Assembly: GCF_030867095.1 (NCBI RefSeq) | Contig: NC_081830.1 | Coordinates: forward strand, 36,191,832 to 36,255,831 | Source of the DNA: Alligator mississippiensis | Taxonomy: Eukaryota; Chordata; Crocodylia; Alligatoridae | Direction: 5' to 3' | Length of the DNA stretch: 64,000 nt | Shown here: in pieces, positions 11,235-61,131 of the stretch | How the letters are laid out: the number at the start of each line of letters is the position of its first letter | Numbering within the stretch: the first letter of the stretch is position 1 | Notes under the pieces: generated by a model | Database searches by the model: none | Told to the model about the DNA's origin: nothing | What the model saw: only the letters and a program-made list of their open reading frames with translations | Translations under genes and position numbers: made by a program

Positions 11235-13629
11235 ATAGTTTCATAGTTTCATAGATGTTAGGGTCGGAAGGGACCTCAATAGATCATCAAGTCCGACCCC
11301 CTGCATAAGCAGGAAAGAGTGCTGGGTCTAGATGAGCCCAGCTAGATACTCGTCTAACCTCCTCTTGAAGACCCCCAGGGTAGGGGAGAGCACCACCTCC
11401 CTTGGGAGCCCGTTCCAGACCTTGGCCACTCGAACTGTGAAGAAGTTCTTCCTAATGTCCAGTCTAAATCTGCTCTCTGCTAGCTTGTGGCCATTGTTTC
11501 TTGTAACCCCCGGGGGCGCCTTGGTGAATAAATCCTCACCAATTCCCTTCTGTGCCCCCGTGATGAACTTATAGGCAGCCACAAGGTCGCCTCTCAACCT
11601 TCTCTTGCTGAGGCTGAAAAGGTCCAGTTTCTCTAGTCTCTCCTCGTAGGGCTTGGTCTGCAGGCCCTTGACCATAAGAGTTGCCCTTCTCTGTACCGTC
11701 TCCAGGTTATCCGCATCCTTCCTGAAGTGTGGCGCCCAGAATTGCACGCAGTACTCCAACTGCAGTCTGACCAGCGCCCGATAGAGGGGAAGTATCACCT
11801 CCCTGGACCTATTCGTCATGCATCTGCTGATGCACGATAAAGTGCCATTGGCTTTTCTGATGGCTTCGTCACACTGCCGGCTCATGTTCATCTTGGAGTC
11901 CACTAGGACTCCAAGATCCCTTTCCACCTCTGTGCCACCCAGCAGGTCATTCCCTAGGCTGTAGGTGTGCTGGACATTTTTCCTCCCTAGGTGCAGCACT
12001 TTGCATTTCTCCTTGTTGAACTGCATCCTGTTGTTTTCTGCCCACTTGTGCAACGTATCCAGGTCTGCCTGCAGCTGTTTCCTGCCCTCCGGCGTGTCCA
12101 CTTCTCCCCATAGCTTTGTGTCATCTGCAAACTTGGACAGAGTACATTTGACTCCCTCGTCCAAGTCGCTGATGAAGACATTAAAGAGTATTGGTCCAAG
12201 GACCGAACCCTGCGGGACCCCACTGCCCACACCATTCCAGGTGGAGACCGACCCATCTACCACAACTCTTTGGGTGCGACCCTCTAGCCAATTTGCCACC
12301 CACCGGACTGTGCAGTCATCCACATCACAGCCTCTTAGCTTGTTCACCAGTATGGGGTGGGATACCGTATCGAACGCCTTCCTGAAGTCTAAGTATACGA
12401 CATCCACCCCTCCTCCTGTGTCCAGGCATTTCGTAACCTAGTCATAGAAAGAGACTAGGTTGGTCAGGCACGATCTGCCCGCCACAAACCCATGCTGGTT
12501 TCCCCTCTGCATAATTTGCCCTGCCGGGCTCTCACAAATGTGAGCCTTGATAATTTTTTCAAAGACTTTGCCAAGGATGGAGGTGAGACTGACTGGCCTA
12601 TAGTTGCCCAGGTCCTCCTTCCTCCCCTTTTTGAAAATGGGGACCACGTTAGCCCTTTTCCAGTCTTCTGGGACTTGGCCCGTGTGCCACGAGCGTTCGA
12701 ATATTCCCGCCAGTGGCTCTGCAATGATGTCGGCCAGTGCCTTCAGCACCCTCGGATGGAGCTCATCTGGGCCTGCCGACTTAAAGGCATCCAGTTCTTC
12801 CAAGTGACTCTGCACCACCTCAGGATCTACGTATGGAAGTCTGGCGCCTTGCTGCTGCCTCTCTACAACCCCAGTGAGAGACTTGTCGTGCCCCTCACTT
12901 AGGAACACTGAGGCAAAGAACTCGTTGAGGAGTTCAGCCTTGTCCCCCCTATCTGTCACCAGTTGTTTCTGCCCATTTAGCAGTGGTCCTATTCCTCCCT
13001 GGGCCTTCCTTTTACTCCCAATATCTAAAATACAATTTCTTGTTGTCTTTTACTTGGGTTGCCATCCTCAGCTCCATGGTAGCTTTGGCCCGCCTAACTG
13101 CCTCCCTACAAGCACGAGCAGAGGAGGTATATTCATCTTTAGTGATCTCACCCTGTTTCCACTTTTTATGTGCTCCCCTTTTGGCCCTTAGGCTGCCCTG
13201 GATTTCTCTGGTCAGCCAGGTAAGCCTCCTGGCCCCTTTCCCTCTTTTGCCTCGCTCGGGGATCGTCTTGCTTTGTGCCCGAAGGATCATTTCCTTTAGG
13301 CACAGCCACCCTTCTTGGGCTCCCATCCCTTCAAAACTCCTACTCTGCAGTGCTTCCTTGACTAATCGCCTGAGTGCATTGAGATCAGCTTTCCTAAAGT
13401 CTAGCACTTTCACCCTACTAGTTACCTTACCCACTCGCCGTCTTATGTTGAATTCTATTATAAGGTGATCACTGTCTCCCAAATGGCTACCGATCTGGAG
13501 GTCCCCTATCATGTCATCTCCCGTTGCCAATACTAGATCCAGTATGGCATTCCCCCTAGTGGGACCATGCACCTCCTGTGTCAGGTGGAGGTCCTGTACA
13601 CAGTGGCTAGCCACAATGTTACTAGCCAC
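11235..13629 (-). mobile_element. CR1 LINE, 5'-truncated, 2.4 kb
   Basis: Non-LTR retrotransposon that copies itself by target-primed reverse transcription. On the minus strand it starts within the endonuclease (LDLVLATGDDMIGDL, GDSDHLIIEF), runs through the linker and reverse transcriptase (GPDELHPRVLKAL, VPIFKKGRKEDLGNYRPVSL, YLDFRKAFDTVSH, GVPQGSVLGPILFN, the catalytic FADD in KFADDTKLWG) and ends LDEYLAGLI. The 3' tail (AGATGTTAGGGTCGGAAG on the plus strand, with TTTCATAG repeats near 11,230-11,260) is complete. Breaks: a frame change near 13,010 and one stop at about 12,438 after LVSFYD, which is otherwise in frame with the 359-codon stretch ending at 11,328. ORF1 and the endonuclease N-terminus are missing. 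A perfect inverted repeat sits at the 5' truncation point. Confidence 0.95.
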
Positions 13630-15782: not shown

Positions 15783-15787
15783 CGGGT
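15783..15787. repeat. Target-site duplication CGGGT (left)
   Basis: CGGGT directly before the left LTR of the nested element. It matches 21,621-21,625 exactly. Confidence 0.85.
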
Positions 15788-17346
15788 TGTCATGGCGGGG
15801 TCCTCGCGGAGGGCCGTGATCTCCTTGAGGCCCTCTCTCCGCGCTACTCTGGCCCGAGGGCACCCTCCATTCTCACCCGCCACGTCTTGATGTAATATGT
15901 AATAGGGAGGCTGCCTTGTGTTTCCTCGGGCCTGTCAGCTCCTGGACCCCTCGTGGGTCTCCCCGTACAATGGCACTACCTAAGCGCCCCAGCCTTATGG
16001 GCTATGCGTGGCTCCTACCTCCCCTGATACCACGCCCTAAGCCTCGCAGATGTAAAGGACGTTGTCCGGTCTGTCTCTCTACTGTGGCCCACCCTGGGCT
16101 CCCTCTCTCATGCCCAGCCTCTTGCTGGGACTCTTGTTTGGCCCACTATGGGCCTCCCCTGCCGGTGTGGTTCCGCTCCGGGACTCTCTAGTGGGCCTCC
16201 GGTCTTATGGGCCAACCGCACGGATACCCTCCCTGACTCTGGCTCCCCGCGCTGCTACTCCCTGTCTTCTCAGGGGCAACTGCAGCACCCTGCCTTGGTC
16301 TGAGGGGGATTGCCGCACTAGCCTGCGGCTGGGCTCGCTATGCCCGTGTGCCCACACTGGCCTACTCAACAAAGCACAATGGCGTTCCCCCTCTCTGGGG
16401 CTCGCCTACTCAACAAAGCACAATGGCGTTCCCCCTCTCTGGGGCTCGCCGCGCCCGCACTGGGCTGCTCAATAATACACAATGGCGTTCCCCCTCTCTG
16501 GGGCTCGCCGCGCCCACACTGGGCTACTCAGTATGGCCCCACTCTCTAGGGCTGCTCAGTATGGCGCTCCCCCCTTCTCTGGGGCTTGCCGTGCCCACAT
16601 TGGGCTACTCAGTAATACCGCCCCTTTCCTGGGGCCGGGGGGCTATGTTCCCCCACACGCAATCCGGGGTCTCGGTCCCCGTTCGCAACCTACAGGCTGC
16701 GCCCGCGACCCACTGGCCGCGCTCCTCGCCGCCCACTGCTCGCGCAGTGGCGTGCGAGCTGCGCCTTCCCTGGCGCTATACAGGGGCTATGTTCCCCCAC
16801 ACGCAATCCGGGGTCTAGGTCCCCGTCTGCAACCTACGGGTTGCGCCCGCGACCTACTGGCCGTGCTCCTCGCCGCCAGTTGCTCACGCACTGGCGTGCA
16901 AGTAATTGAGGCCTCCTCCAACCCCTACAGCCTCGCCCAAGCCTCCGGGTGTAATAACACAAACACAAAGCAAAACCACAAGCCCCTAGGCTGTAACACA
17001 AATGCAAGCCGCATGGCCATAACTCATCATCATAGCTCAAGCCTCCAGGGCTATCATGAGCTGTACTTGCGACTTAGGCTCCTTCCCATATCTCGGCCGG
17101 GGGAGCTCCTGCCTCTCCGACTGCTGGCAGAGAACTCCCAGCCTGGCCTCAGCCCTGAGCTTTATAAGGGCCAGGCCCTGCCCCCTACAGGCAGCTGGCT
17201 CCGCTTGGTTGCTCCGGCAACCCGCAGCTGCGCTCATTACCTGAGCCAGCCTCAGCTGGGCTCGTCATGTCAGGCCAGGGCGCACTCACTTGCTCCCTGG
17301 CAGTTTCTCCACTCTAGGAGCAGGGGCACCGAGGTGCCCTGCGACA
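15788..17346 (-). repeat. 3' LTR of the nested element (1,559 bp)
   Basis: TGTCATGG...CTGCGACA on the plus strand. It matches 20,003-21,620 with about 30 substitutions and one fewer 59-base tandem unit. A minus-strand TATA-like TTATAAAG lies at 17,160-17,167, about 180 bases from the LTR start. Tandem 44-base and 59-base units with ACAATGGCGTTCCCCCTCTC cores occupy about 16,365-16,545. CpG-rich. Confidence 0.9.
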
Positions 17347-17362
17347 CACCTCCCCCCCCCCC
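17347..17362 (-). other. Polypurine tract of the nested element
   Basis: Read on the minus strand the sequence is a run of eleven G followed by AGGTG, immediately before the TGTCGC start of the 3' LTR. This is the position and composition of a plus-strand priming site. Confidence 0.75.
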
Positions 17363-17587
17363 AAGATCGAACTCACCGAGGGAGATCTTCATTCTTGTCA
17401 CATTCAGTTTGACTTGGCGGCTCTTCTCGGCCTTTCTTCCGGCACCCGGCGCTTTCTGCATAAGTGGCGGAGGTTTTAAGGCGCTCCCTGCTCGCCTTTT
17501 CCCCAGGGTGCACCGTGTGGGATTTCCTGGGATTTACCCTGCCAAAGGTAGTCCCCCCACACTAGCTTTTCCCTGGTACGGTGCAAA

Positions 17588-19785
17588 CTAGGCCTCTGTC
17601 CTCTCCGCCTTTGTCGCCTCCACACTCTTCCTGGTGGAGCAGTTTTCCCTTGTTCGGGGTATCTGGTCTCCTCTTCCCCATCTCGGCCTTAAAGCTCCTC
17701 CTCTGTGTTCCCTATAATCACCTCTCCTTTCCGAGGTCCTCTTAGTCTCCTGCCAGTCTTTGAGCTTTCCCCAAAGCTCCCACTGCATTTTAAGCTCTCG
17801 CTGGACATTTTTCTCTTCCCAGAACTCTATCTTTCCTTGACCAGTGGATCTCCCCTCCGGTCCTGTATACACCTTTACGAACGCTACTCCTCCAACTCTA
17901 GCCTCGACTATTCTCCTCAGGGTCCTCCATTTAATTTGTCCTGGGAGATTGTGAACATATACATAGGGCCTTTTCCTTCCCTTTTGTTCTCTCTGTGATC
18001 GAGTTACCCTTGCTGTTGAGGGTTTACTAGCCTCCTTAGCAGGGCCTGTAACTTGCACTCGATCCGTTCTCTGTTGCTGCACAAGCCCAGACGTCTTGTC
18101 CTTAAGATGGAGTTTGTCACCTCTCTCCCCTCTCCCCTTAAGTTCCTTGGGGCTTTGGCCCCTTCCTTTCAGTCTAGGCCTTTCTTCCTGCCCTAACTGT
18201 TCTCCCTTTTTAGTGCGGTGAGGGCAGCATGGCTCACTGTTTATGTCACTGCCTCTGACCCCCTCGCTGTCTTGGACCGCTACTACTTTCTCTCCCTTTA
18301 CCCCTTTCAGTTGTACCGGACTTGACACGGGGATTACCCCCACGTCATTCCTTCTGGCGAGTTCTTCCACTCTTTCTCTTAAGCTATTCAGCTCTAGGGC
18401 ACACTGCTCGGCCCAGCGCTTCCACTCTCGCTCGAGGTGTTTGACCATCGTAGGGCCACTCTCTTTCCCCGCTACTGTCACCTCTGTTTCAGGAGGTTCC
18501 ATTGTCATTGTTCCCTTCTCCTCCTTGGGGATTCTCATCCCTATATTCTCCCGAATTTCTAGGTTCACCTGGCCCTTTAAATATATGGTACGGGCTCTCT
18601 CCATCCACTCTCCGGCCTCTATCAGGGTCGCTCTCAAGGTCCCCAGTTCTTGCCACTGTTCCTGGCACTCAGTATTAATCCGGGACACGTGCTCCTCTAA
18701 TTGCTTAGCTATTACCACTAGCTGTTCTCTCTGTGCCTGGACAGCCTGCCCTAGTTGCTGCTCATTCTCCTGCTGCAACATTGCCTCTCTGGCTGTACTT
18801 TCTCTTAGTAGGGCCTTCAGGGCTGTCTCTCTTCCTGGAACCTTTTAATCTCTTCCTCTAAGGCCTGTACCTGTTGTTTCGAGGTTTGCATCTGCTGCCA
18901 TAGCTGCTCCCTCTCGGTGTCGGTTGCTGCCTCTTTGACCGACCTCTCTTCTAAAAGAGCTTCAAGGTGCTGTACCTGTTCTTCACAGAGGTCCTTTTCC
19001 ACTGCCCCTTTTTTCAACTGGGCCCGCAACTCTTCAGTCTCTCTCACCTTGGCCTCTAATTCTTTCTCTCCCCTCTGACACTGGGCCTGCAGCTTTATAT
19101 CCTCTTCTGTTTTGGCTTTCATCTCAGCCTCAAGGGACTGCTTCTGTGCTTCTAAAGCCTCCTGACTGGCCATATATTCTTTTACCCTCTCCATTTCTCT
19201 TATTATCACCTTCCTGGTTTCCTCTACCTGGACTTGATTTTCTGCCAGCTTCTTTCTAAGCTCCTCAACCAAGCGTTCAGCCTGGTCACATCTCTCTTGC
19301 CAGATCCCCAGGCTCTCCTGTAGGCTCTCTATCTGCGTCGCCTGGCTACGGATCTCCTCCTGGAGAGCAGCTATAAGGTTCTTGGATACCTCTAGCCGCA
19401 GTTTCTTTTCTTTTTGTTCCCCCGTCTGGCCTATATCAGGTTCTGGGGACTTCTTCTCCCATGCTGCTAACCGTTTCTGCATTTCGCAGAGTTTTTCCTC
19501 CCGCTGCCTACCTCTCTTAGTCTCCTCTGCCACGAGCCGCTCTATTGCTCGGGTCTTCTCCGCCTCTGCTGCCAATAGGCGCCTAATTTCTTTGGAGCCT
19601 TCCTTTTTTCCGGGTTGTCCCCGCAGTTCTAAAGTGGCCACTTTGGCCTCGGCTTGCTCTTTTTGTGACTGAGCTATCTCTAGCTCCCATTCTACTCGCT
19701 CAATATTTTCTTCGAGCTCGTTCACCCGTAACAGCCACTCAAAATTCTCTCGTTTCAGGTTTTCTATATCATCTATTCCTGCCAT
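17588..19785 (-). CDS. Coding interval of the nested element: coiled coil plus RRM
   Basis: Fossil coding potential of the LTR element. The first part (about 18,400-19,785 on the minus strand, beginning MAGIDDIENLKREN) is almost wholly heptad-like, rich in Glu, Gln, Lys and Leu, as in long coiled coils. Near the end (about 17,745-17,985) is an RRM-like fold: RNP2-like YVYVHNLP, then IKWRTLRRIVEARVGGVAFV, and RNP1-like TGQGKIEFWEE. The KW..L...V...VG.V.(F/Y)V...EG.S.G.G..EF pattern resembles RRM1 of hnRNP M and MYEF2. A basic Arg/Lys-rich tail and linker flank the RRM. Inference: an RNA-binding, self-associating protein in place of Gag, similar in layout to LINE-1 ORF1p (coiled coil then RRM). 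No pol domains. The interval may carry about one break. Confidence 0.7.
17745..17985 (-). other. RRM-like domain within the nested element
   Basis: About 80 residues with the beta1-alpha1-beta2-beta3-alpha2-beta4 order of an RRM. RNP2 is VYVHNLP and RNP1 is GQGKIEFW, with the aromatic of RNP1 position 5 reduced to Ile-Glu-Phe as in hnRNP M-type RRMs. Beta4 (GKLKDWQE) is weaker. The assignment is by eye. Confidence 0.65.
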
Positions 19786-19982
19786 AGTTATGCCTCTTTT
19801 TCTCTAGACCTAACCCAATGTCTTTCTATCTGCAATTCTGACTGGCAGTCTTGTACTTGACCTGGGTTTATTCTCCCAAGTCCCTCAAACCTACTGCCCC
19901 GTCTGTCTCTGCAGATCCGTTCTAGCCCTAAGGTTCTTTTCCCCTTCTCAGGGACATGGGTTCTTTCCCCGTGCACAGCCGT

Positions 19983-20000
19983 TTCCCGGCCAATGCACCA
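19983..20000 (-). other. Primer-binding site, tRNA-Gly
   Basis: On the minus strand TGGTGCATTGGCCGGGAA begins two bases after the 5' LTR. It is an 18-base perfect complement of the 3' end (with CCA) of vertebrate tRNA-Gly (GCC-type, ending TTCCCGGCCAATGCA), from memory of that tRNA. Confidence 0.85.
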
Positions 20001-20002
20001 GA

Positions 20003-21620
20003 TGTCACGGCGGGGTCCTCGCGGAGGGCCGTGATCTCCTTGAGGCCCTCTCTCCGCGCTACTCTGGCCCGAGGGCACCCTCCATTCTCGCCCGCCACGT
20101 CTTGATGTAATATGTAATAGGGAGGCTGCCTTGTGTTTCCTCGGGCCTGTCAGCTCCTGGACCCCTCGTGGGTCTCCCCGTACAATGGCACTACCTAAGC
20201 GCCCCAGCCTTATGGGCTATGCGTGGCTCCTACCTCCCCTGATACCATGCCTCAAGCCTCACAGATGTAAAGGACGTTGTCCAGTCTGTCTCTCTACTGT
20301 GGCCCACCCTGGGCTCCCTCTCTCATGCCCAGCCTCTTGCTGGGACTCTTGTTTGGCCCACTATGGGCCTCCCCTGCCGGTGTGGTTCCGCTCCGGGACT
20401 CTCTAGTGGGCCTCCGGTCTTATGGGCCAACCGCACGGATACCCTCCCTGACTCTGGCTCCCCGCGCTGCTACTCCCTGTCTTCTCAGGGGCAACCGCAG
20501 CGCCCTGCCTTGGTCTGAGGGGGATTGCCGCACTAGCCTGCGGCCGGGCTCGCTATGCCCGTGCACCCACACTGGCCTACTCAACAAAGCACAATGGCGT
20601 TCCCCCTCTCTGGGGCTCACCTACTCAACAAAGCACAATGGCGTTCCCCCTCTCTGGGGCTTGCTGTGCCCGCACTGGGCTGCTCAATAATACACAATGG
20701 CATTCCCCCTCTCTGGGGCTCGCCGCGCCCGCACTGGGCTGCTCAATAATACACAATGGCATTCCCCCTCTCTGGGGCTCGCCGCGCCCACACTGGGCTA
20801 CTCAGTATGGCCCCACTCTCTAGGGCTGCTCAGTATGGCGCTCCCCCCTTCTCTGGGGCTTGCCGTGCCCACACTGAGCTACTCAGTAATACCGCCCCTT
20901 TCCTGGGGCCGGGGGGCTATGTTCCCCCACACGCAATCCGGGGTCTCGGTCCCCGTTCGCAACCTATGGGCTGCGCCCGCGACCCACTGGCCGCGCTCCT
21001 CGCCGCCCGCTGCTCGTGCAGTGGTGTGCGAGCTGCGCCTTCCCTGGCGCTATACAGGGGCTATGTTCCCCCACACGCAATCCGGGGTCTAGGTCCCCGT
21101 CTGCAACCTACGGGTTGCGCCCACGACCTACTGGCCGTGCTCCTCGCCGCCAGTTGCTCACGCACTGGCGTGCGAGTAATTGAGGCCTCCTCCAACCCCT
21201 ACAGCCTCGCCCAAGCCTCCGGGTGTAATAACACAAACACAAAGCAAAACCACAAGCCCCTAGGCTGTAACACAAATGCAAGCCGCATGGCCATAACTCA
21301 TCATCATAGCTCAAGCCTCCAGGGCTATCATGAGCTGTACTTGCGACTTAGGCTCCTTCCCATATCTCGGCCAGGGGAGCTCCTGCCTCTCCGGCTGCTG
21401 GCAGAGAACTCCCAGCCTGGCCTCAGCCCTGAGCTTTATAAGGGCCAGGCCCTGCCCCCTACAGGCAGCTGGCTCCGCTTGGTTGCTCCGGCAACCCGCA
21501 GCTGCGCTCATTACCTGAGCCAGCCTCAGCTGGGCTCGTCATGTCAGGTCAGGGCGCGCTCACTTGCTCCCTGGCAGTTTCTCCACTCTAGGAGCAGGGG
21601 CACCGAGGTGCCCTGCGACA
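20003..21620 (-). repeat. 5' LTR of the nested element (1,618 bp)
   Basis: Same sequence as 15,788-17,346, with one additional 59-base tandem unit (about 20,640-20,760), which accounts exactly for the length difference. Minus-strand TATA-like at 21,434-21,441. I saw no canonical AATAAA on the minus strand downstream of it. Confidence 0.9.
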
Positions 21621-21625
21621 CGGGT
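21621..21625. repeat. Target-site duplication CGGGT (right)
   Basis: Exact copy of 15,783-15,787, beyond the outer end of the 5' LTR. Confidence 0.85.
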
Positions 21626-27077: not shown

Positions 27078-28013
27078 CTATTTTCCTTTCCAGAGACCAG
27101 ATCTGCCCAGCTGCCTTTTCATAGCACTGAGAATCTCCCTGTTCCTCAGTGTGTAGATCATGGGATTCATGAGAGGGAAGACCACAGTGTGGAACACGGC
27201 CACCACCTTGTCCATAGGGAAGCTGCGGAAGGGCCGGCAGTAGAGATAGATGGCTGAGCTAAACATAACAAAGACAATCATGATGTGGGTGACACAGGTG
27301 GAAGCTGCTTTGCTCTTTTCATAGGAGGAACTTGCTCTCAGCCGTAACAGCAGGACCCCATAGGAGATCAACAGAAGAAGAAAGCACATGAGCATGGCCA
27401 TGCCACTGTTGAAGAACATGATGAATTCCAAGATGTACGTGTCAGTGCAAGCCAATTTGATCACCTGGCTGATGTCACAAAAGAAGTTGTCCAGCTTGTT
27501 GGGGCCACAGAAAAGGAGAGGAACAATGAGGGCAACCTGGATGCTGGAGTGAATCAATCCGCCTGCCCAGGCAGCCACCACTAAGGCCCAGCAGACTCCC
27601 CTGTTTACCACAGTGGCATAGTGTAGTGGCTTACACATGGCCATGTACCTGTCAAAGGCCATGGCAATAAGCAGGAACATCTCAGCTGCTCCTAAGAAGT
27701 GAAGAAAGAATAGTTGGGCCATGCAGGCCCCGTAGGAGATAGCCTTGCAGCAGGAGAAGAAGTCAGCCAGCATTCTAGGTGGGGTGACAGAGCAGTAACA
27801 AATGTCCAGGAAGGCCAGGCTGGCCAGGAAGAAATACATGGGGGAGCCCAGGTGGGGGTCTCCATTGATGGTGAGGATGATGAGGACATTAGCTGGGAGG
27901 ATCAGTGAATAGAAGAGAAGAAACAAGCCAAGGAGGAACAGCTGGACCTCCTGGGTCTGAGACAGTCCTAGCAACACAAACTCTGTCACCTCTGTGCTGT
28001 TTCGATGCTCCAT
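27078..28013 (-). CDS. Intact olfactory receptor, family 4-like
   Basis: Seven-transmembrane odorant receptor of olfactory cilia, coupling to the olfactory G protein. 311 residues, the usual length. An N-glycosylation site N5-S-T, TM1 with a variant (P)AN instead of GN at 41-42, PMYFFL at 58-63, Cys97 for the TM3-loop disulphide, MAFDRYMAMC at 118-127, KAASTCVTH in TM6 and NPMIYTLRN at 283-291. The DISQVIKLACTDT loop and CRPFRSFPMDKVVAVFHTV before TM7 are typical of family 4. The ATG at 28,013 is chosen because it is the first one after a splice acceptor 18 bases upstream and gives the canonical short N-terminus. No break is seen. Broken relatives lie at 6,732-7,697 and 24,945-25,150. Confidence 0.93.
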   Translation of the reverse strand: MEHRNSTEVTEFVLLGLSQTQEVQLFLLGLFLLFYSLILPANVLIILTINGDPHLGSPMYFFLASLAFLDICYCSVTPPRMLADFFSCCKAISYGACMAQLFFLHFLGAAEMFLLIAMAFDRYMAMCKPLHYATVVNRGVCWALVVAAWAGGLIHSSIQVALIVPLLFCGPNKLDNFFCDISQVIKLACTDTYILEFIMFFNSGMAMLMCFLLLLISYGVLLLRLRASSSYEKSKAASTCVTHIMIVFVMFSSAIYLYCRPFRSFPMDKVVAVFHTVVFPLMNPMIYTLRNREILSAMKRQLGRSGLWKGK

Positions 28014-28030
28014 TTCATCAGTACGGAGTC

Positions 28031-28032
28031 CT
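28031..28032 (-). promoter_or_regulatory. Predicted splice acceptor for the OR coding exon
   Basis: On the minus strand TGTGTTACAG ends here, followed by GACTCCGTACTGATGAA and the start codon. OR genes usually join a non-coding first exon at such a site just 5' of the ATG. The polypyrimidine tract is weak. Confidence 0.45.
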
Positions 28033-28259
28033 GTAACACATGCATGAATTCTTGTTATTCTTTGTAGTTGTCATTTTGTGACATAGCTGTCATGGTAGCT
28101 TTCATGAAAATGTCTGGTTCAGGGAACAGCTAATATCAGAGCATTGTTGTACCAAGTATTTCAAAGACCATGACCAAGGATGAGCTCCCTGCATTGTGCA
28201 AGTGCTGAACAGTCCTCATCTGGCATTTTCAGTCCTCAACTGAAAATCAGGTTTTCACT

Positions 28260-40990: not shown

Positions 40991-41527
40991 ACCACAACAC
41001 ATGATTCACAAGACAAATTTCCCATAGGATTTCTTAGTGTCAAAAACTTTCTGATGTCCTGTGGTCATTCTGAGTTCTTCCTGAGAAACAGAAGAAGTGT
41101 TCTGTTGTTTCTCTATGGTCGAAAATGATTGAAAGCTAAGAGCTGGTATATTCTGAGGGGTGCCTTGAGTCTAATGAGAGGTACCTAGAGTCCAGTGAGG
41201 TCAAGAACTACTGATCTACAGCATCCATACTGGGTCTTTCTCATGCATGGAAGGTGTCAGATCACGTATGGACTCATGTATTGCATGTGTGAGTGTATGT
41301 GCATGTGCATGTGAGCACATGTGAGAGCACTGCTCTGTGTTGGATGATGGAGCCATGTTCAGTGAATGAATGTCTGCCTGTGTGCTGTTTGGTCAACATT
41401 CTGCTCTCAGGGCTGATGATATAACAGGAGTCCTGACTTTCACATTTCACAGCTCTCCCTCATCAGGGCCTTATCCATTCTCAAAGAAAGGAGTTGAACT
41501 TGGTTATCTTGTATGTCATTTCCTTCC

Positions 41528-41529
41528 AG
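41528..41529 (+). promoter_or_regulatory. Predicted splice acceptor, OR11-like gene 1
   Basis: TGTCATTTCCTTCCAG ends here, a good pyrimidine tract plus AG, 15 bases before the chosen start codon. The same sequence precedes the second OR11-like gene. Confidence 0.6.
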
Positions 41530-41544
41530 ATCCAGGCTTCCCGA

Positions 41545-42480
41545 ATGATTTTAAACAATGCCACCAGCCCTGTGACTGAGTTCATCCTGTTGGGCTTTTC
41601 GTCCCTGGACCAGACAAGTCGCTTCTTCCTTTGTGCCCTCCTCTCCTCAACCTATACCCTGACACTGGCAGGAAACTTTTGTATCATGTGGGCTATTCTA
41701 CAGGACCCCCGCCTCCACCATTTGCCCATGTATGTCCTCCTGGGGAATTTCTCTTTCCTGGAGATCTGCTACATCACAGCTACAGTGCCACGGATGCTGG
41801 TGGATCTGGTGACCCCTCAAGGAGACATCATTTCCTTTCAAGCCTGCTTCCTCCAGTTCTATTTCTTCTTCTCTATGGGGGCCACTGAATGCTCCTTCCT
41901 TTCAGCCATGGCATTAGATAGGTACCTGGCTATTTGTCACCCCCTGCATTACCCCAGCCTCATGTCCCAGCAGATCTGCTTAATCCTGGTGGCTTCTTGC
42001 TGGGTTTGTGGCTTCCTCTGGTTCATGATCCCCATTGTCCTCATCTCTCAGCTCCCCTTCTGCCACCCCAATGTCTTGGATCATTTTGTTTGTGATCCAG
42101 CCCCATTGCTAGCTGTCTCCTGTGCCCTTAGTCCTCAGACTGAACATGCCTTCTATACCCTTAGTTCCCTCATCATTATTGGTACTTTTCTATTTATTCT
42201 GGCCTCCTATGCAATGATTCTTACGGCAGTGATGAGACTACCACAGGGGGCTGGGAGACGCAAGGCCTTTTCCACATGCACTTCACATCTTGCTGTGGTA
42301 GGTCTCTTCTATGGCTCTATTATGGTCACTTATGTCAATCCAGCAGCCTCCGGGAGCAGTGGGAAGATAGTCACACTTTTCTATGTAGTGGTGACACCAC
42401 TGTTCAACCCGTTGATCTACAGCTTGAGAAACAAGGAGGTGAAGGAAGCTTTGAGGAAGACACTGCTTGGGGAGCGATAG
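41545..42480 (+). CDS. Intact olfactory receptor, OR11-like (copy A)
   Basis: Odorant receptor of the ciliary membrane, 311 residues. The frame is open from 41,494, but the ATG at 41,545 is preferred: it lies just after the splice acceptor, and the resulting MILNNATSPVTEF start has the usual N-glycosylation site (N5-A-T). Motifs: GN at 43-44 in TM1, PMYVLL at 61-66, Cys101, MALDRYLAIC at 122-131, KAFSTCTSH in TM6, NPLIYSLRN at 288-296. The FYFFFSMGATEC TM3 and VLISQLPFC...LDHFVCDPAPLL second extracellular loop match the OR11 family. It is 90% identical (32 differences) to the receptor at 60,196-61,131. No break was seen, so it is probably functional. Confidence 0.94.
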   Translation: MILNNATSPVTEFILLGFSSLDQTSRFFLCALLSSTYTLTLAGNFCIMWAILQDPRLHHLPMYVLLGNFSFLEICYITATVPRMLVDLVTPQGDIISFQACFLQFYFFFSMGATECSFLSAMALDRYLAICHPLHYPSLMSQQICLILVASCWVCGFLWFMIPIVLISQLPFCHPNVLDHFVCDPAPLLAVSCALSPQTEHAFYTLSSLIIIGTFLFILASYAMILTAVMRLPQGAGRRKAFSTCTSHLAVVGLFYGSIMVTYVNPAASGSSGKIVTLFYVVVTPLFNPLIYSLRNKEVKEALRKTLLGER

Positions 42481-48684: not shown

Positions 48685-51600
48685 TTTCATAGATTTCATA
48701 GACATTAGAGCTGGAAGGGACCTCGGAAGATCATCGAGTCCAGCCCCCCGCCCAAAGGGCAGGAAGTCAGCTGGGGTCATAGGATCCCAGCAAGATAAGC
48801 ATCCAGTTTCATCTTGAAGGTGTTCAATGAAGGCGCTTGAACAACCTCCGGTGGCAGGCTGTTCCAGACCTTGGGGGCTCGGACAGTAAAGAAATTCTTC
48901 CTTATGTCCAGCATGAAACGATCTTGTAGTAGTTTGTGACCATTTGACCTCGTCATCCCTTGGGGCGCTCTGGTGAACAAACGTTCCCCCAGATACTGGT
49001 GGTCACCCCTGATAAACTTGTAGGTGGCCATCAGATCACCCCTGAGCCTGCGCTTTTCCAGGCTAAAGAGCCCCAGGGCTCTCAGCCTGTCATCGTAGGG
49101 TCTGCTTCCCTGACTTCTGATCATGCGCGTGGCTTTTCTCTGGACTCTCTCAAGTTTCTCCACATCCTTTTTGAATTGTGGAGCCCAAAACTGGACGCAG
49201 TACTCCAGCTGCGGCCTCACTAAGGCCAAGTACAGGGGGAGAATGACGTCCCAGGATTTGCTCGAGAAGCATCTATGGATGCAAGCCAGCGTTTTGGTCG
49301 CTTTACTAGCCGCAGCATCGCATTGCAGGCTCATGTTCATCTTGTGGTCAATGATGACCCCCAAGTCTCTTTCTTCCATAGTGCTAGCCAACACAGCACT
49401 GCCGAGCCTATAAGGATGCTGTGGGGTTTTTTTCCCAAGGTGGAGAACTTTGCATTTATCGGCGTTGAACACCATCAGATTCTCGTCCGCCCACTTGCTG
49501 AGCCTGTCCAGGTCAGCCTGGATCACCCGCCTGTCTTCTGGTGTGGATGTTTTGCCCCAAAGTTTGGTGTCATCTGCGAACTTGGCCAGTCCGATTCTGA
49601 CTCCAGTGTCCACATCATTAATGAAGATGTTGAACAGTATGGGTCCAAGGACAGAGCCCTGGGGGACCCCACTGGTCACAGGACACCACGATGAGTGACT
49701 TCCATTAATTACTACCCTCTGGGTCCGACCCTGGAGCCAATTTTCCAGCCAGTGGATCGTGGAGGACCCAAGGCGACAATTGGCCAGTTTCTCCAAGAGA
49801 CGATCATGGGACACCAGATCGAAGGCTTTTTTGAAGTCAAGATATATGACATCAATCTCATCTCCCTTGTCCAGGTGATAGGTCACCTGGTCGTAGAAGG
49901 AAATGAGATTGGTCAAGCAAGACCTACCCACAACAAACCCGTGCTGGCTATCCCTTAAGATGTTGGCGTCGGCCAGTCCATTAAGGATGGCCTCTTTAAT
50001 AAACTTTTCTAAGATCTTCCCCGGGATAGAAGTCAGGCTGATGGGCCTATAGTTAGCCGGATCCACTTTCCTCCCTTTCTTGAAGATAGGCACCACATTG
50101 GCCTTCTTCCAGTCTTCGGGCACTACACCAGAGCGCCAAGAGTTTTCAAAGATCTGCACTAGAGGCTGGGCTATGATGCTCGCCAGCTCCTTGAGTACCC
50201 TGGGGTGAAGATTGTCAGGGCCAACTGACTTGAAGGTATCCAGCTTCTCAAGATGTTCCTTCACAAAGTCAGCATTAATGGAGGGCAAGGGATCACCCTC
50301 ACCCGGACTTCCCGGCCCTGTAGCGGGCACGGGCGTCTCATGGGGCTGATGAAAGACCGACGCAAAGTACCTATTTAATAGGTTGGCTTTTTCCTGGGCG
50401 CCAGTTGTCAGTTGCCCCATCTGGTTCAGCAGGGGTCCAATGTTGCCCCTGCTTTTCCTCCGGCTCCCCACATATCTGAAAAAGGACTTTTTATTGTCCT
50501 TGATGCTCAAAGCTAGCTGGAGTTCAGTTGCAGCCTTGGCTTTCCTGGTCTGCTCCCTACAGGACCGGACCAGTGCAGAATAATCCTCCTTGGAGGTGAC
50601 TCCCATCCTCCATCCTTTGTAGGCCTTTCTTTTTAGCCTCAGGAGGTCTGCTAGGTCCCTGGAGAGCCAGGGGTGGATGCTGTGCCCTCTTGCTGCCTTT
50701 CCTCCGAGATGGAATAGACTTAGTTTGTGCATGGAGGATCGCTCCCTTGAGGAGCAACCACTCTTCTTGAACTCCCCTCTCCCTGTGGTCACAGTCCCTT
50801 AGGGCCTCACTGACAAGCCTCCTGAGCTTGTCAAAGTCGGCTTTCCTGAAGTCAAGGACTTCCGTGTTGCTGACCGACTTGCCAGCTTTTCGACGGATGG
50901 TGAAGGTGATCAGCTCGTGGTCGCTGTCACCCAGCTTCCCATCGATCACTAGGTCGCCAACTAGGTCATCCCCAGTAGCCAGTACCAGGTCGAGCAGCAC
51001 TTTGCCTCTCGTTGGCCCATAGACTTCTTGAGTCAGGTAGAGGTCACCCACACACGAGAGGAAGCTCTGCGACCACTCAGATTTTGCTGAGCGATCCTCC
51101 CACGAGATGTCTGGGTAATTGAAGTCACCCACAACAACCATGGTCCTGGAGCAAGCTGCCTCAGCCAGTTCCCGGGCAAACTCCTGGCCAAGCTCAGGTC
51201 TTTGGGTGGGAGGTCTGTAATAGACTCCCACCATTGTGTCCCCTGTGCCGTGTTCCCCACAGATTTTAACCCAGAGGGTCTCCAGCCGTCCACCCTGGTC
51301 ACCAATATCGGCTTGCAGGGACGTGTAGCTTTCCTTAACATAGAGAGCTACACCCCCGCCCCTCTTATCTACACGATCCCTCCTGTAAGGGTATAGCCAT
51401 CTATCCCCATGGTCCAGTCATGGGTGGAGTCCCACCAGGTCTCCATTATCCCTATGACATCGTAATTGTTTGCACTGAGCAGAAGGATGAGCTCCTCCTG
51501 CTTATTCCCCAGGCTCCTGGCATTAGTGTACAGGCAGGCAAGTGCCCCCTGGGGGGCTCCTTCCTTGCCCACAGATTTTACCAGGGCTGGGGCTGGGGTG

Positions 51601-59675: not shown

Positions 59676-60178
59676 ACCCAGCATGATTCATAAGATGAAC
59701 CCAAAGATTTCCCATAGGAATTCTTAGTGTCAATATCTTTCTGATCTCCTGAGGTCTTTCTGAACTATTTCTGAGAAGTAGAAGAATTGCTCTATTAGTT
59801 CTTTGTAGTCAAAAATGACAGAGAGCTAAGAGATAAAATTTTCTGTGCGGAGCCTAGAGTCTAATGAGTTTGAGCGCTACGGCTCCATGCTACAGCATCC
59901 ATGCTGGGTCCTTTTCAACAATGGAGGGTGTTGAACATGTATGGACTTTGAAATGCATTGCAAGTGTGAGTGTATGAGTGCACATGTGAGAACAATACTA
60001 CCTGTTGGAAGATGTAGCCACATTCAGTGAATGAATGTCAATTTTTCTATACTATTTGGTCAGAATTCTGCTCTCAACGCTGATGATGTAACAGGAGTCC
60101 TGACTCCCAGGTATCCCAGATCTCTCCCACTAGAAACTCAGGAGTAGACCTTTGATATCTTGTGTGTCATTTCCTTTC

Positions 60179-60180
60179 AG
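60179..60180 (+). promoter_or_regulatory. Predicted splice acceptor, OR11-like gene 2
   Basis: TGTCATTTCCTTTCAG ends here, 15 bases before the chosen start codon, at the same relative position as in copy A. Confidence 0.6.
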
Positions 60181-60195
60181 ATCTTGGCTTCCCCA

Positions 60196-61131
60196 ATGAT
60201 TTTAAATAATGCCACTAGCCCCGTGACTGAGTTCATCCTGTTAGGCTTTTCATCCCTGGACCAGACAAGCCGCCTTCTCCTCTGTGCCCTCCTCTCCTCA
60301 ACCTATACCCTGACACTGGCTGGCAACCTTTGCATCATGTGGGCTATTCTACAGGACCCCCGCCTCCACCATTTGCCCATGTATGTCTTCCTGGGGAATT
60401 TCTCTTTCCTGGAGATCTGCTACATCACAGCTACAGTGCCACGGATGATAGTGGACCTGGTGACCCCTCAGGGAGATGTGATCTCCTTTCAGGCCTGCTT
60501 CCTCCAGTTCTACTTCTTTTTCTCCATGGGGACCACAGAATGCTTCTTCCTTTCAGCTATGGCCTTGGATAGGTACCTGGCTATTTGTCACCCCCTGCAT
60601 TACCCCAGCCTCATGTCCCAGCGGTTCTGCTTATTCCTGGTGGCCTCCTGCTGGGTTTGTGGCTTCCTCTGGTTTATGGTCCCCATTGTCCTCATCTCTC
60701 AGCTTCCCTTCTGCCACCCCAGTGTCTTGGATCATTTTCTCTGTGATCCAGCCCCATTGCTGGCTGTCTCCTGTGTCCCTGCTCCCCAGACTGAACGTGG
60801 CTTATATACCCTTAGTTCCCTCATCATTATTGCTACTTTTCTATTTATTCTGGCCTCCTACACAATGGTTCTTAAGGCAGTGATGAGACTGCCCTGGGGG
60901 GCTGGAAGACACAAGGCATTATCTACCTGTACCTCACACTTCGCTGTGGTGGGTCTCTTCTATGGCTCTGTCATGGTCACTTATGTCAATCCAGCAGCCT
61001 CCAGGAGCAGTGGGAAGATGGTTACACTCTTCTATGTAGTGGTGACACCACTGTTCAACCCATTGATCTACAGCTTGAGAAACAAGGAGGTGAAAGAAGC
61101 TTTGAGGAGGACACTGCTGGGGGAGCGATAG
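60196..61131 (+). CDS. Intact olfactory receptor, OR11-like (copy B)
   Basis: Odorant receptor, 311 residues from the ATG at 60,196; the frame is open from 60,160, but the downstream ATG follows the splice acceptor and gives the same MILNNATSP start as copy A. Motifs: GN at 43-44, PMYVFL at 61-66, Cys101, MALDRYLAIC at 122-131, KALSTCTSH in TM6 and NPLIYSLRN at 288-296. The 32 differences from copy A are spread over the protein, with clusters in the second extracellular loop region (CVPAPQTERGL against CALSPQTEHAF) and TM5, where ligand contacts lie in this receptor class. No break was seen. Both genes end LLGER and share a similar 3' flank, confirming tandem duplication. Confidence 0.94.
   Translation: MILNNATSPVTEFILLGFSSLDQTSRLLLCALLSSTYTLTLAGNLCIMWAILQDPRLHHLPMYVFLGNFSFLEICYITATVPRMIVDLVTPQGDVISFQACFLQFYFFFSMGTTECFFLSAMALDRYLAICHPLHYPSLMSQRFCLFLVASCWVCGFLWFMVPIVLISQLPFCHPSVLDHFLCDPAPLLAVSCVPAPQTERGLYTLSSLIIIATFLFILASYTMVLKAVMRLPWGAGRHKALSTCTSHFAVVGLFYGSVMVTYVNPAASRSSGKMVTLFYVVVTPLFNPLIYSLRNKEVKEALRRTLLGER

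What the first reader, a model, noticed from the sequence alone, without database searches (positions are those of the whole stretch)
17347..20002. LTR retrotransposon whose internal region encodes a coiled coil and an hnRNP M-like RRM instead of gag-pol
Seen: a structurally complete element (matched LTRs, 5-bp target duplication, tRNA-Gly primer site, polypurine tract) with a 2.66-kb interior. The only coding signal, on the minus strand, is a long Glu/Gln/Lys-rich coiled coil followed by YVYVHNLP...TGQGKIEFW, a convincing RRM. Established: RRMs carry RNP2 and RNP1 motifs; LINE-1 ORF1p has coiled coil plus RRM; retroviral Gag does not normally have an RRM. Inference: this non-autonomous family replaced Gag with, or captured, a host RNA-binding domain that may package its own RNA, a layout convergent with LINE-1 ORF1p. 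I do not know of a described LTR family like this.
Basis: partly seen in the sequence, partly recalled or inferred. Interest (0 to 1): 0.87.

Follow-up and report, generated by a model that had tools for sequence, protein, structure and literature searches.

The report
Alligator jumping element with RNA-binding protein
An LTR retrotransposon family in the alligator genome shows no copying enzymes and instead encodes one long coiled-coil protein ending in an RNA-binding domain that evolution has preserved, a layout better known from a different class of jumping gene (LINE-1).

The parts
20003..21620 (-). 5' LTR (1618 bp, TGTC...GACA in sense)
   Evidence: LTR comparison; repeats
15788..17346 (-). 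3' LTR (1559 bp; one 59-bp unit shorter)
15783..15787 (.). target-site duplication CGGGT, left
21621..21625 (.). target-site duplication CGGGT, right
19983..20000 (-). primer binding site TGGTGCATTGGCCGGGAA (tRNA-Gly type; tRNA identity recalled)
   Evidence: sequence; same pattern in 20 of 21 sequences examined
17350..17362 (-). polypurine tract before the 3' LTR
   Evidence: sequence; similar tract before the 3' LTR in those copies whose LTR start was delimited
17161..17166 (-). TATAAA 180 bp into the LTR (21435-21440 in the 5' LTR)
   Evidence: offset 170-180 in 13 of the 15 delimited elements (L021 and L028, with misplaced starts, differ)
18817..19785 (-). open stretch A from its first Met, predicted as three long helices (coiled coil)
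   Evidence: model of 322 residues, pLDDT 83.3, helices 2-55, 63-112, 122-319
17588..18844 (-). open stretch B, other frame: end of coil, linker, RRM, basic tail
17747..17986 (-). RRM domain as compared between copies (Pfam match 17801-17962)

Best explanation
A non-autonomous LTR retrotransposon family of alligators that encodes a single structural RNA-binding protein. Shown: LTRs, primer site, polypurine tract and 5-bp duplications of an element that moved by reverse transcription and integration; one frame (about 700 and 770 codons from the conserved Met in the two copies where it is fully open) of coil, linker, RRM and tail that fills most of the interior; purifying selection on N-terminus and RRM between subfamilies; mosaic copies. 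Inferred: the transcript is translated; the protein oligomerises through the coil, binds element RNA through the RRM and forms the ribonucleoprotein that is handed to reverse transcriptase and integrase supplied in trans by another LTR element. The mosaic copies fit two element RNAs sharing one particle during reverse transcription. The selection argues that the protein works at least partly in cis, like LINE-1 ORF1p.
For: Structure and duplications: (12 of 15 delimited elements show an exact 5-bp duplication). RRM in 20 of 20 fetched copies and, with coil, in an A. sinensis protein, P0004. Selection: RRM pN/pS 0.26-0.43 between subfamilies; bootstrap upper limits of eight pairs 0.30-0.57; third-position excess in the RRM and none in the stretch after the stop codon; constraint strongest at N-terminus and RRM, weakest in linker and tail. 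Open frames L011 and L019. RRM fold. Helical coil without a globular domain in residues 1-322. Mosaicism.
Against: No partner element was found; the genome searches for it did not complete. No expression or RNA-binding data. Selection alone cannot tell a role in the element's own spread from another role. The RNP1-like motif (GQGKIEFW) lacks some of the usual aromatic residues (usual motif recalled), so RNA binding could be weak or changed. The RRM model lacks the fourth strand and its last 26 residues score only 56-70 in pLDDT. The helix model does not show the oligomeric state, and a periodicity test gave no clean heptad signal for stretch A.
Confidence: 0.6

Rival explanations
1. The element is an internal-deletion derivative of an autonomous LTR element whose ordinary Gag is this coiled coil plus RRM protein, with pol downstream.
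For: Gag-only derivatives are common among LTR elements (recalled); the copies keep primer site and polypurine tract.
Against: The interiors of the 15 delimited elements are 2.4-2.8 kb, and no pol family was found by Pfam in the frames scanned. The copies were chosen by matching this interior, and not all matches were fetched, so a longer form could have been missed.
Confidence: 0.25
2. The RRM descends from the N-terminal RNA-binding domain of metaviral Gag (PNMA/Gypsy-30_AMi type), rearranged behind a new coiled coil with capsid lost.
For: Such metaviruses are reported in alligator (PMC11011659, section 10 read). Both are RRM-fold domains in LTR elements.
Against: Here the domain is C-terminal and matches canonical RRM_1 (up to 32.1 bits). 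No PNMA family appeared in Pfam scans up to E 10 and no PNMA chain in the profile search of solved structures up to E 10; weak tests, as it was not checked which PNMA models or chains those libraries hold. No capsid domain found in what was scanned or modelled.
Confidence: 0.15
3. The coil-RRM gene is a captured host gene carried as a passenger, selected for an effect on the host cell (for instance on RNA silencing or splicing), not for particle formation.
For: Crocodilian retroviruses have captured KIT-ligand and nectin3 (PMC4299795, abstract and passages read). The RRM matches cellular RRMs by profile and fold.
Against: The 16 proteins listed are all Alligator proteins that look like copies of the element, and one search found nothing; these searches see only relatives that share short exact words. 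The gene fills the interior instead of sitting beside gag-pol.
Confidence: 0.15

Closest known systems
LINE-1 ORF1p (type II ORF1: coiled coil, RRM, C-terminal domain)
   Same: Order coiled coil then one RRM (type II layout: PMC4120745 passages); role in RNA packaging by analogy.
   Different: LINE-1 has no LTRs and moves by target-primed reverse transcription (recalled). Pfam Transposase_22 was not hit here; the RRM matches canonical RRM_1. A similar layout, no sign of descent.
PNMA-type metaviruses (Gypsy-30_AMi), RBD-CA-NC gag
   Same: LTR elements, one in the same host, with an RRM-fold domain in the structural protein (PMC11011659).
   Different: There the domain is N-terminal, followed by capsid and nucleocapsid and a pol; here it is C-terminal behind a coiled coil, with no capsid, nucleocapsid or pol found.
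TR-GAG / LARD non-autonomous LTR elements of plants
   Same: LTRs, primer site, polypurine tract, no pol, one structural-type frame (definition recalled; listing only).
   Different: TR-GAG elements keep a recognisable gag domain (recalled); none was found here.
Crocodilian ERVs with captured genes (CrocERV29 KIT-ligand, CrocERV31 nectin3)
   Same: Crocodilian LTR elements carrying non-retroviral coding sequence.
   Different: There the captured gene sits between pol and env or in place of env (passages); the main text has no hit for RNA recognition, coiled or hnRNP.

Membership tests
LTR retrotransposon (mobile element) | LTR pair, target duplication, primer site, polypurine tract | tested here: met
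Autonomous LTR element or ERV | gag, protease, RT, RNase H, integrase (env for many ERVs) | tested here: not met
   window stretches A and B and six related sequences gave no such Pfam family; the L011 frame (703 aa) covers 2109 of a 2524-bp interior; other frames were not scanned
TR-GAG non-autonomous element | recognisable gag domain | tested here: not met
   no gag family in Pfam scans up to E 10 or E 1; residues 1-322 model as rods
LINE-1 type II ORF1p | coiled coil followed by RRM | tested here: met
   by composition, helix model and RRM fold; no clean heptad signal
LINE-1 type II ORF1p | Transposase_22 C-terminal domain | tested here: not met
   PF02994 not among hits
PNMA/Gypsy-30 metaviral gag | N-terminal RNA-binding domain next to capsid | tested here: not met
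   RRM is C-terminal, no capsid family found; residues 1-322 model as rods; the middle of the protein was not modelled
PNMA/Gypsy-30 metaviral gag | domain homologous to the PNMA RBD | tested here: inconclusive
   no hit; no direct profile comparison was possible
hnRNP M-like RRM | closest relative is hnRNP M/MYEF2 | tested here: inconclusive
   hnRNP M only E 0.16-0.57 by sequence; Hrb1 E 4e-6

The most novel reading that the evidence does not exclude
An LTR retrotransposon lineage in which the capsid-forming Gag has been replaced by a LINE-1-ORF1p-like coiled coil plus RRM protein that packages its own RNA in cis and borrows pol from another element, the same layout having arisen separately in LTR and non-LTR elements.
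Probability: 0.4. Interest if true: 0.82.

Novelty: new variant of a known kind. Interest (0 to 1): 0.62.

Why it matters
If right, an LTR element can spread with a packaging protein that has no capsid fold, so what is essential in Gag might be RNA binding plus self-association. It would offer an independent comparison for LINE-1 ORF1p, whose coil-RRM design is much studied. Practically, relatives of this gene stand in public databases as alligator golgin-, trichohyalin- or tropomyosin-like genes and should be re-annotated.

Tried and rejected
Rejected: secondary insertion (same interior between LTR pairs in other copies); chance coding (codon-position test with the stretch after the stop codon as control); a programmed stop after LPG (L009 and L010 have TGA, L016 TAA, and the other 17 of 20 sequences examined an amino-acid codon there, so taken as decay).

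Led nowhere: heptad periodicity by Fourier transform gave no clean 3.5 peak for stretch A (best 4.3), so 'coiled coil' rests on composition and the helix model; the homology search with the RRM part of L019 found nothing up to E 10. PNMA, MARF1 and telomerase p65 did not appear among the rows shown of the fold searches; absence there excludes nothing. Papers PMC3605345, PMC5753468 and PMC7602945 (passages only) held nothing on the question.

Not tested: autonomous partner, full LTR copy number, host origin of the RRM, turtles, birds and other crocodilians, Repbase.

Full report
What was claimed. An LTR retrotransposon at 17347-20002 (interior) whose only coding signal is a coiled coil plus an RRM. 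I checked anatomy, coding, family, selection and literature.

Anatomy. On the minus strand the element runs from the 5' LTR (21620-20003) to the 3' LTR (17346-15788). The LTRs align over 1559 bases with 27 mismatches, all transitions, and one 59-bp gap; CGGGT flanks both ends. The primer site TGGTGCATTGGCCGGGAA and a G-rich tract sit where they should. With the crocodilian rate quoted in PMC4299795 (3.9e-10 per site per year, passage seen), the LTR distance of 0.0176 gives roughly 23 million years, probably inflated by CpG decay.

Host. The window is C7:36191832-36255831 of a 2.35-Gb assembly. Contig C15 is 38,737,084 bases long, the same as the longest contig given for the Alligator mississippiensis protein P0003, so the genome is taken to be American alligator (inference).

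Family. A search with the interior gave 84 matches, a lower bound because 40 of 434 candidates were scored. I fetched 20 other copies, chosen from this list with the best matches favoured. All 20 encode the RRM, split over two frames in L012, L013 and L027 and with in-frame stops in L009, L010, L016 and (in the tail) L022. An LTR pair was found in 19 of 20, plus the window (in L022 only a 215-bp pair); L026 missed the script's spacing limit but has LTR matches on both sides of a shortened interior. A script delimited LTRs in 14 of 20 plus the window; 12 of these 15 have an exact 5-bp duplication; in the three without (L016, L021, L028) the script set the 3' end by length, and lengths or alignment show misplaced boundaries. 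The primer site was found in 20 of 21 sequences, not in L026. Interiors of the 15 delimited elements measure 2.4-2.8 kb. LTR distances, leaving out L016 whose ends were misaligned (0.163), range from 0.0156 to 0.0589, about 20-75 million years at that rate. An A. sinensis database protein (P0004) has the same coil and RRM, so the family was already in the ancestor of both alligators, unless moved between them. The 16 proteins listed in two protein searches are all from Alligator; those searches reach only sequences sharing short exact words, and only the 8000 or so candidates sharing most words were scored.

Selection. In the RRM core (20 sequences: window and 19 of 20 loci; L027 dropped as its frame is split) pooled pN/pS is 0.33 within the window's type (91 pairs), 0.26 against type 2 (56), 0.28 against L021 (14), 0.43 type 2 against L021 (4), 0.27 and 0.33 for types 1 and 2 against L028 (14 and 4) and 0.39 for L021 against L028. 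Eight pairs bootstrapped over codons give ratios 0.17-0.40 with upper limits 0.30-0.57; the pairs are not independent and pS is near saturation for the distant ones. Codon-position differences against the window are 0.23, 0.21, 0.54 for type 2 in the RRM, but 0.16, 0.21, 0.19 in the stretch between stop codon and polypurine tract; L021, L028 and 12 type-1 copies show the same contrast (L013 left out there). The control stretch is less diverged than third positions in the distant types, which fits the mosaic history but means that it tests codon periodicity, not rate. Along the frame (15 loci plus window stretch A; L009, L020, L022, L026, L027 left out; 11 pairs computed, fewer where under 26 codons aligned) ratios are 0.22-0.30 at the N-terminus (one further pair 0.61, with very little change), 0.32-0.47 in the coil, 0.28-0.57 in the middle, 0.45-0.76 in the linker, 0.22-0.30 in the RRM (6 pairs) and 0.69 in the tail (1 pair). 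The tail elsewhere gave 0.41-1.1. Changes after insertion push the ratio towards 1, so the constraint while the family was active was probably stronger than these figures.

Mosaic copies. Over the first LTR piece (bases 1-462 or longer) the window is 92-94% identical to L018 and L019, 85-93% to L021 and 86-88% to L016 and L017. Its first 500 interior bases are 91-98% identical to L018, L019 and L021, but its RRM (bases 2050-2250) only 66-74%; from base 700 on it is 95-100% identical to L016 and L017, whose first 300 bases are only 68-75% identical to it. The window copy therefore joins the ends of one subfamily to the coding core of another, as expected from template switching between co-packaged RNAs (inference).

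Mechanism. Shown: structure, coding, fold prediction, selection, mosaicism. Inferred: translation, oligomerisation, RNA binding, cis preference, pol in trans. The strongest constraint at the two ends of the protein fits an assembly part at one end and a nucleic-acid part at the other.

Literature. Ten searches of the open-access library (several lists cut to the best rows, and only starts of abstracts shown) listed no paper that by title or start of abstract describes an LTR element with a coiled coil and RRM and no gag-pol. The nearest is PMC11011659 (abstract, passages and section 10 read): metaviruses of reptiles, amphibians and fish, among them Gypsy-30_AMi of alligator, with a putative RNA-binding domain of RRM-like fold at the N-terminus of an RBD-CA-NC gag. 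PMC4120745 (passages) describes the coil-RRM-CTD layout of type II LINE ORF1. PMC4299795 (abstract and passages) lists KIT-ligand and nectin3 as captured genes in crocodilian ERVs. Repbase was not searchable, so the family may have a Repbase name.

Verdict. Real, multi-copy and under selection; a new variant of non-autonomous LTR retrotransposon with an ORF1p-like protein. It would rate higher had the partner and the RRM's origin been settled.

Noticed in passing
15788-17346 and 20003-21620: All 27 LTR-LTR differences are transitions; the other 13 LTR pairs dated (L016 aside) show 3-16 transversions. CpG decay may explain it.
   Followed up: partly
16362-16614 and 20577-20888: The LTR holds a tandem array with about 59-bp spacing that differs by one unit between the two LTRs; LTR lengths also vary between copies.
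   Followed up: no
P0003, P0005, P0006, P0011, P0013, P0015: Database entries called golgin A6-like, trichohyalin-like, tropomyosin-like or CEP250-like in Alligator look like copies of this element.
   Followed up: partly
27081-28070 (-), 41437-42477 (+), 60148-61128 (+): Three open olfactory-receptor frames (Pfam 7tm_4): the element sits among olfactory receptor genes.
   Followed up: partly
11331-12437 (-) and 48780-50798 (-): Reverse transcriptase frames (RVT_1), probably CR1-type LINEs (family name recalled).
   Followed up: no
L009, L010 (RRM codon after LPG): Both copies have the same TGA where related copies have CGA or CAA: CpG decay or shared descent.
   Followed up: partly
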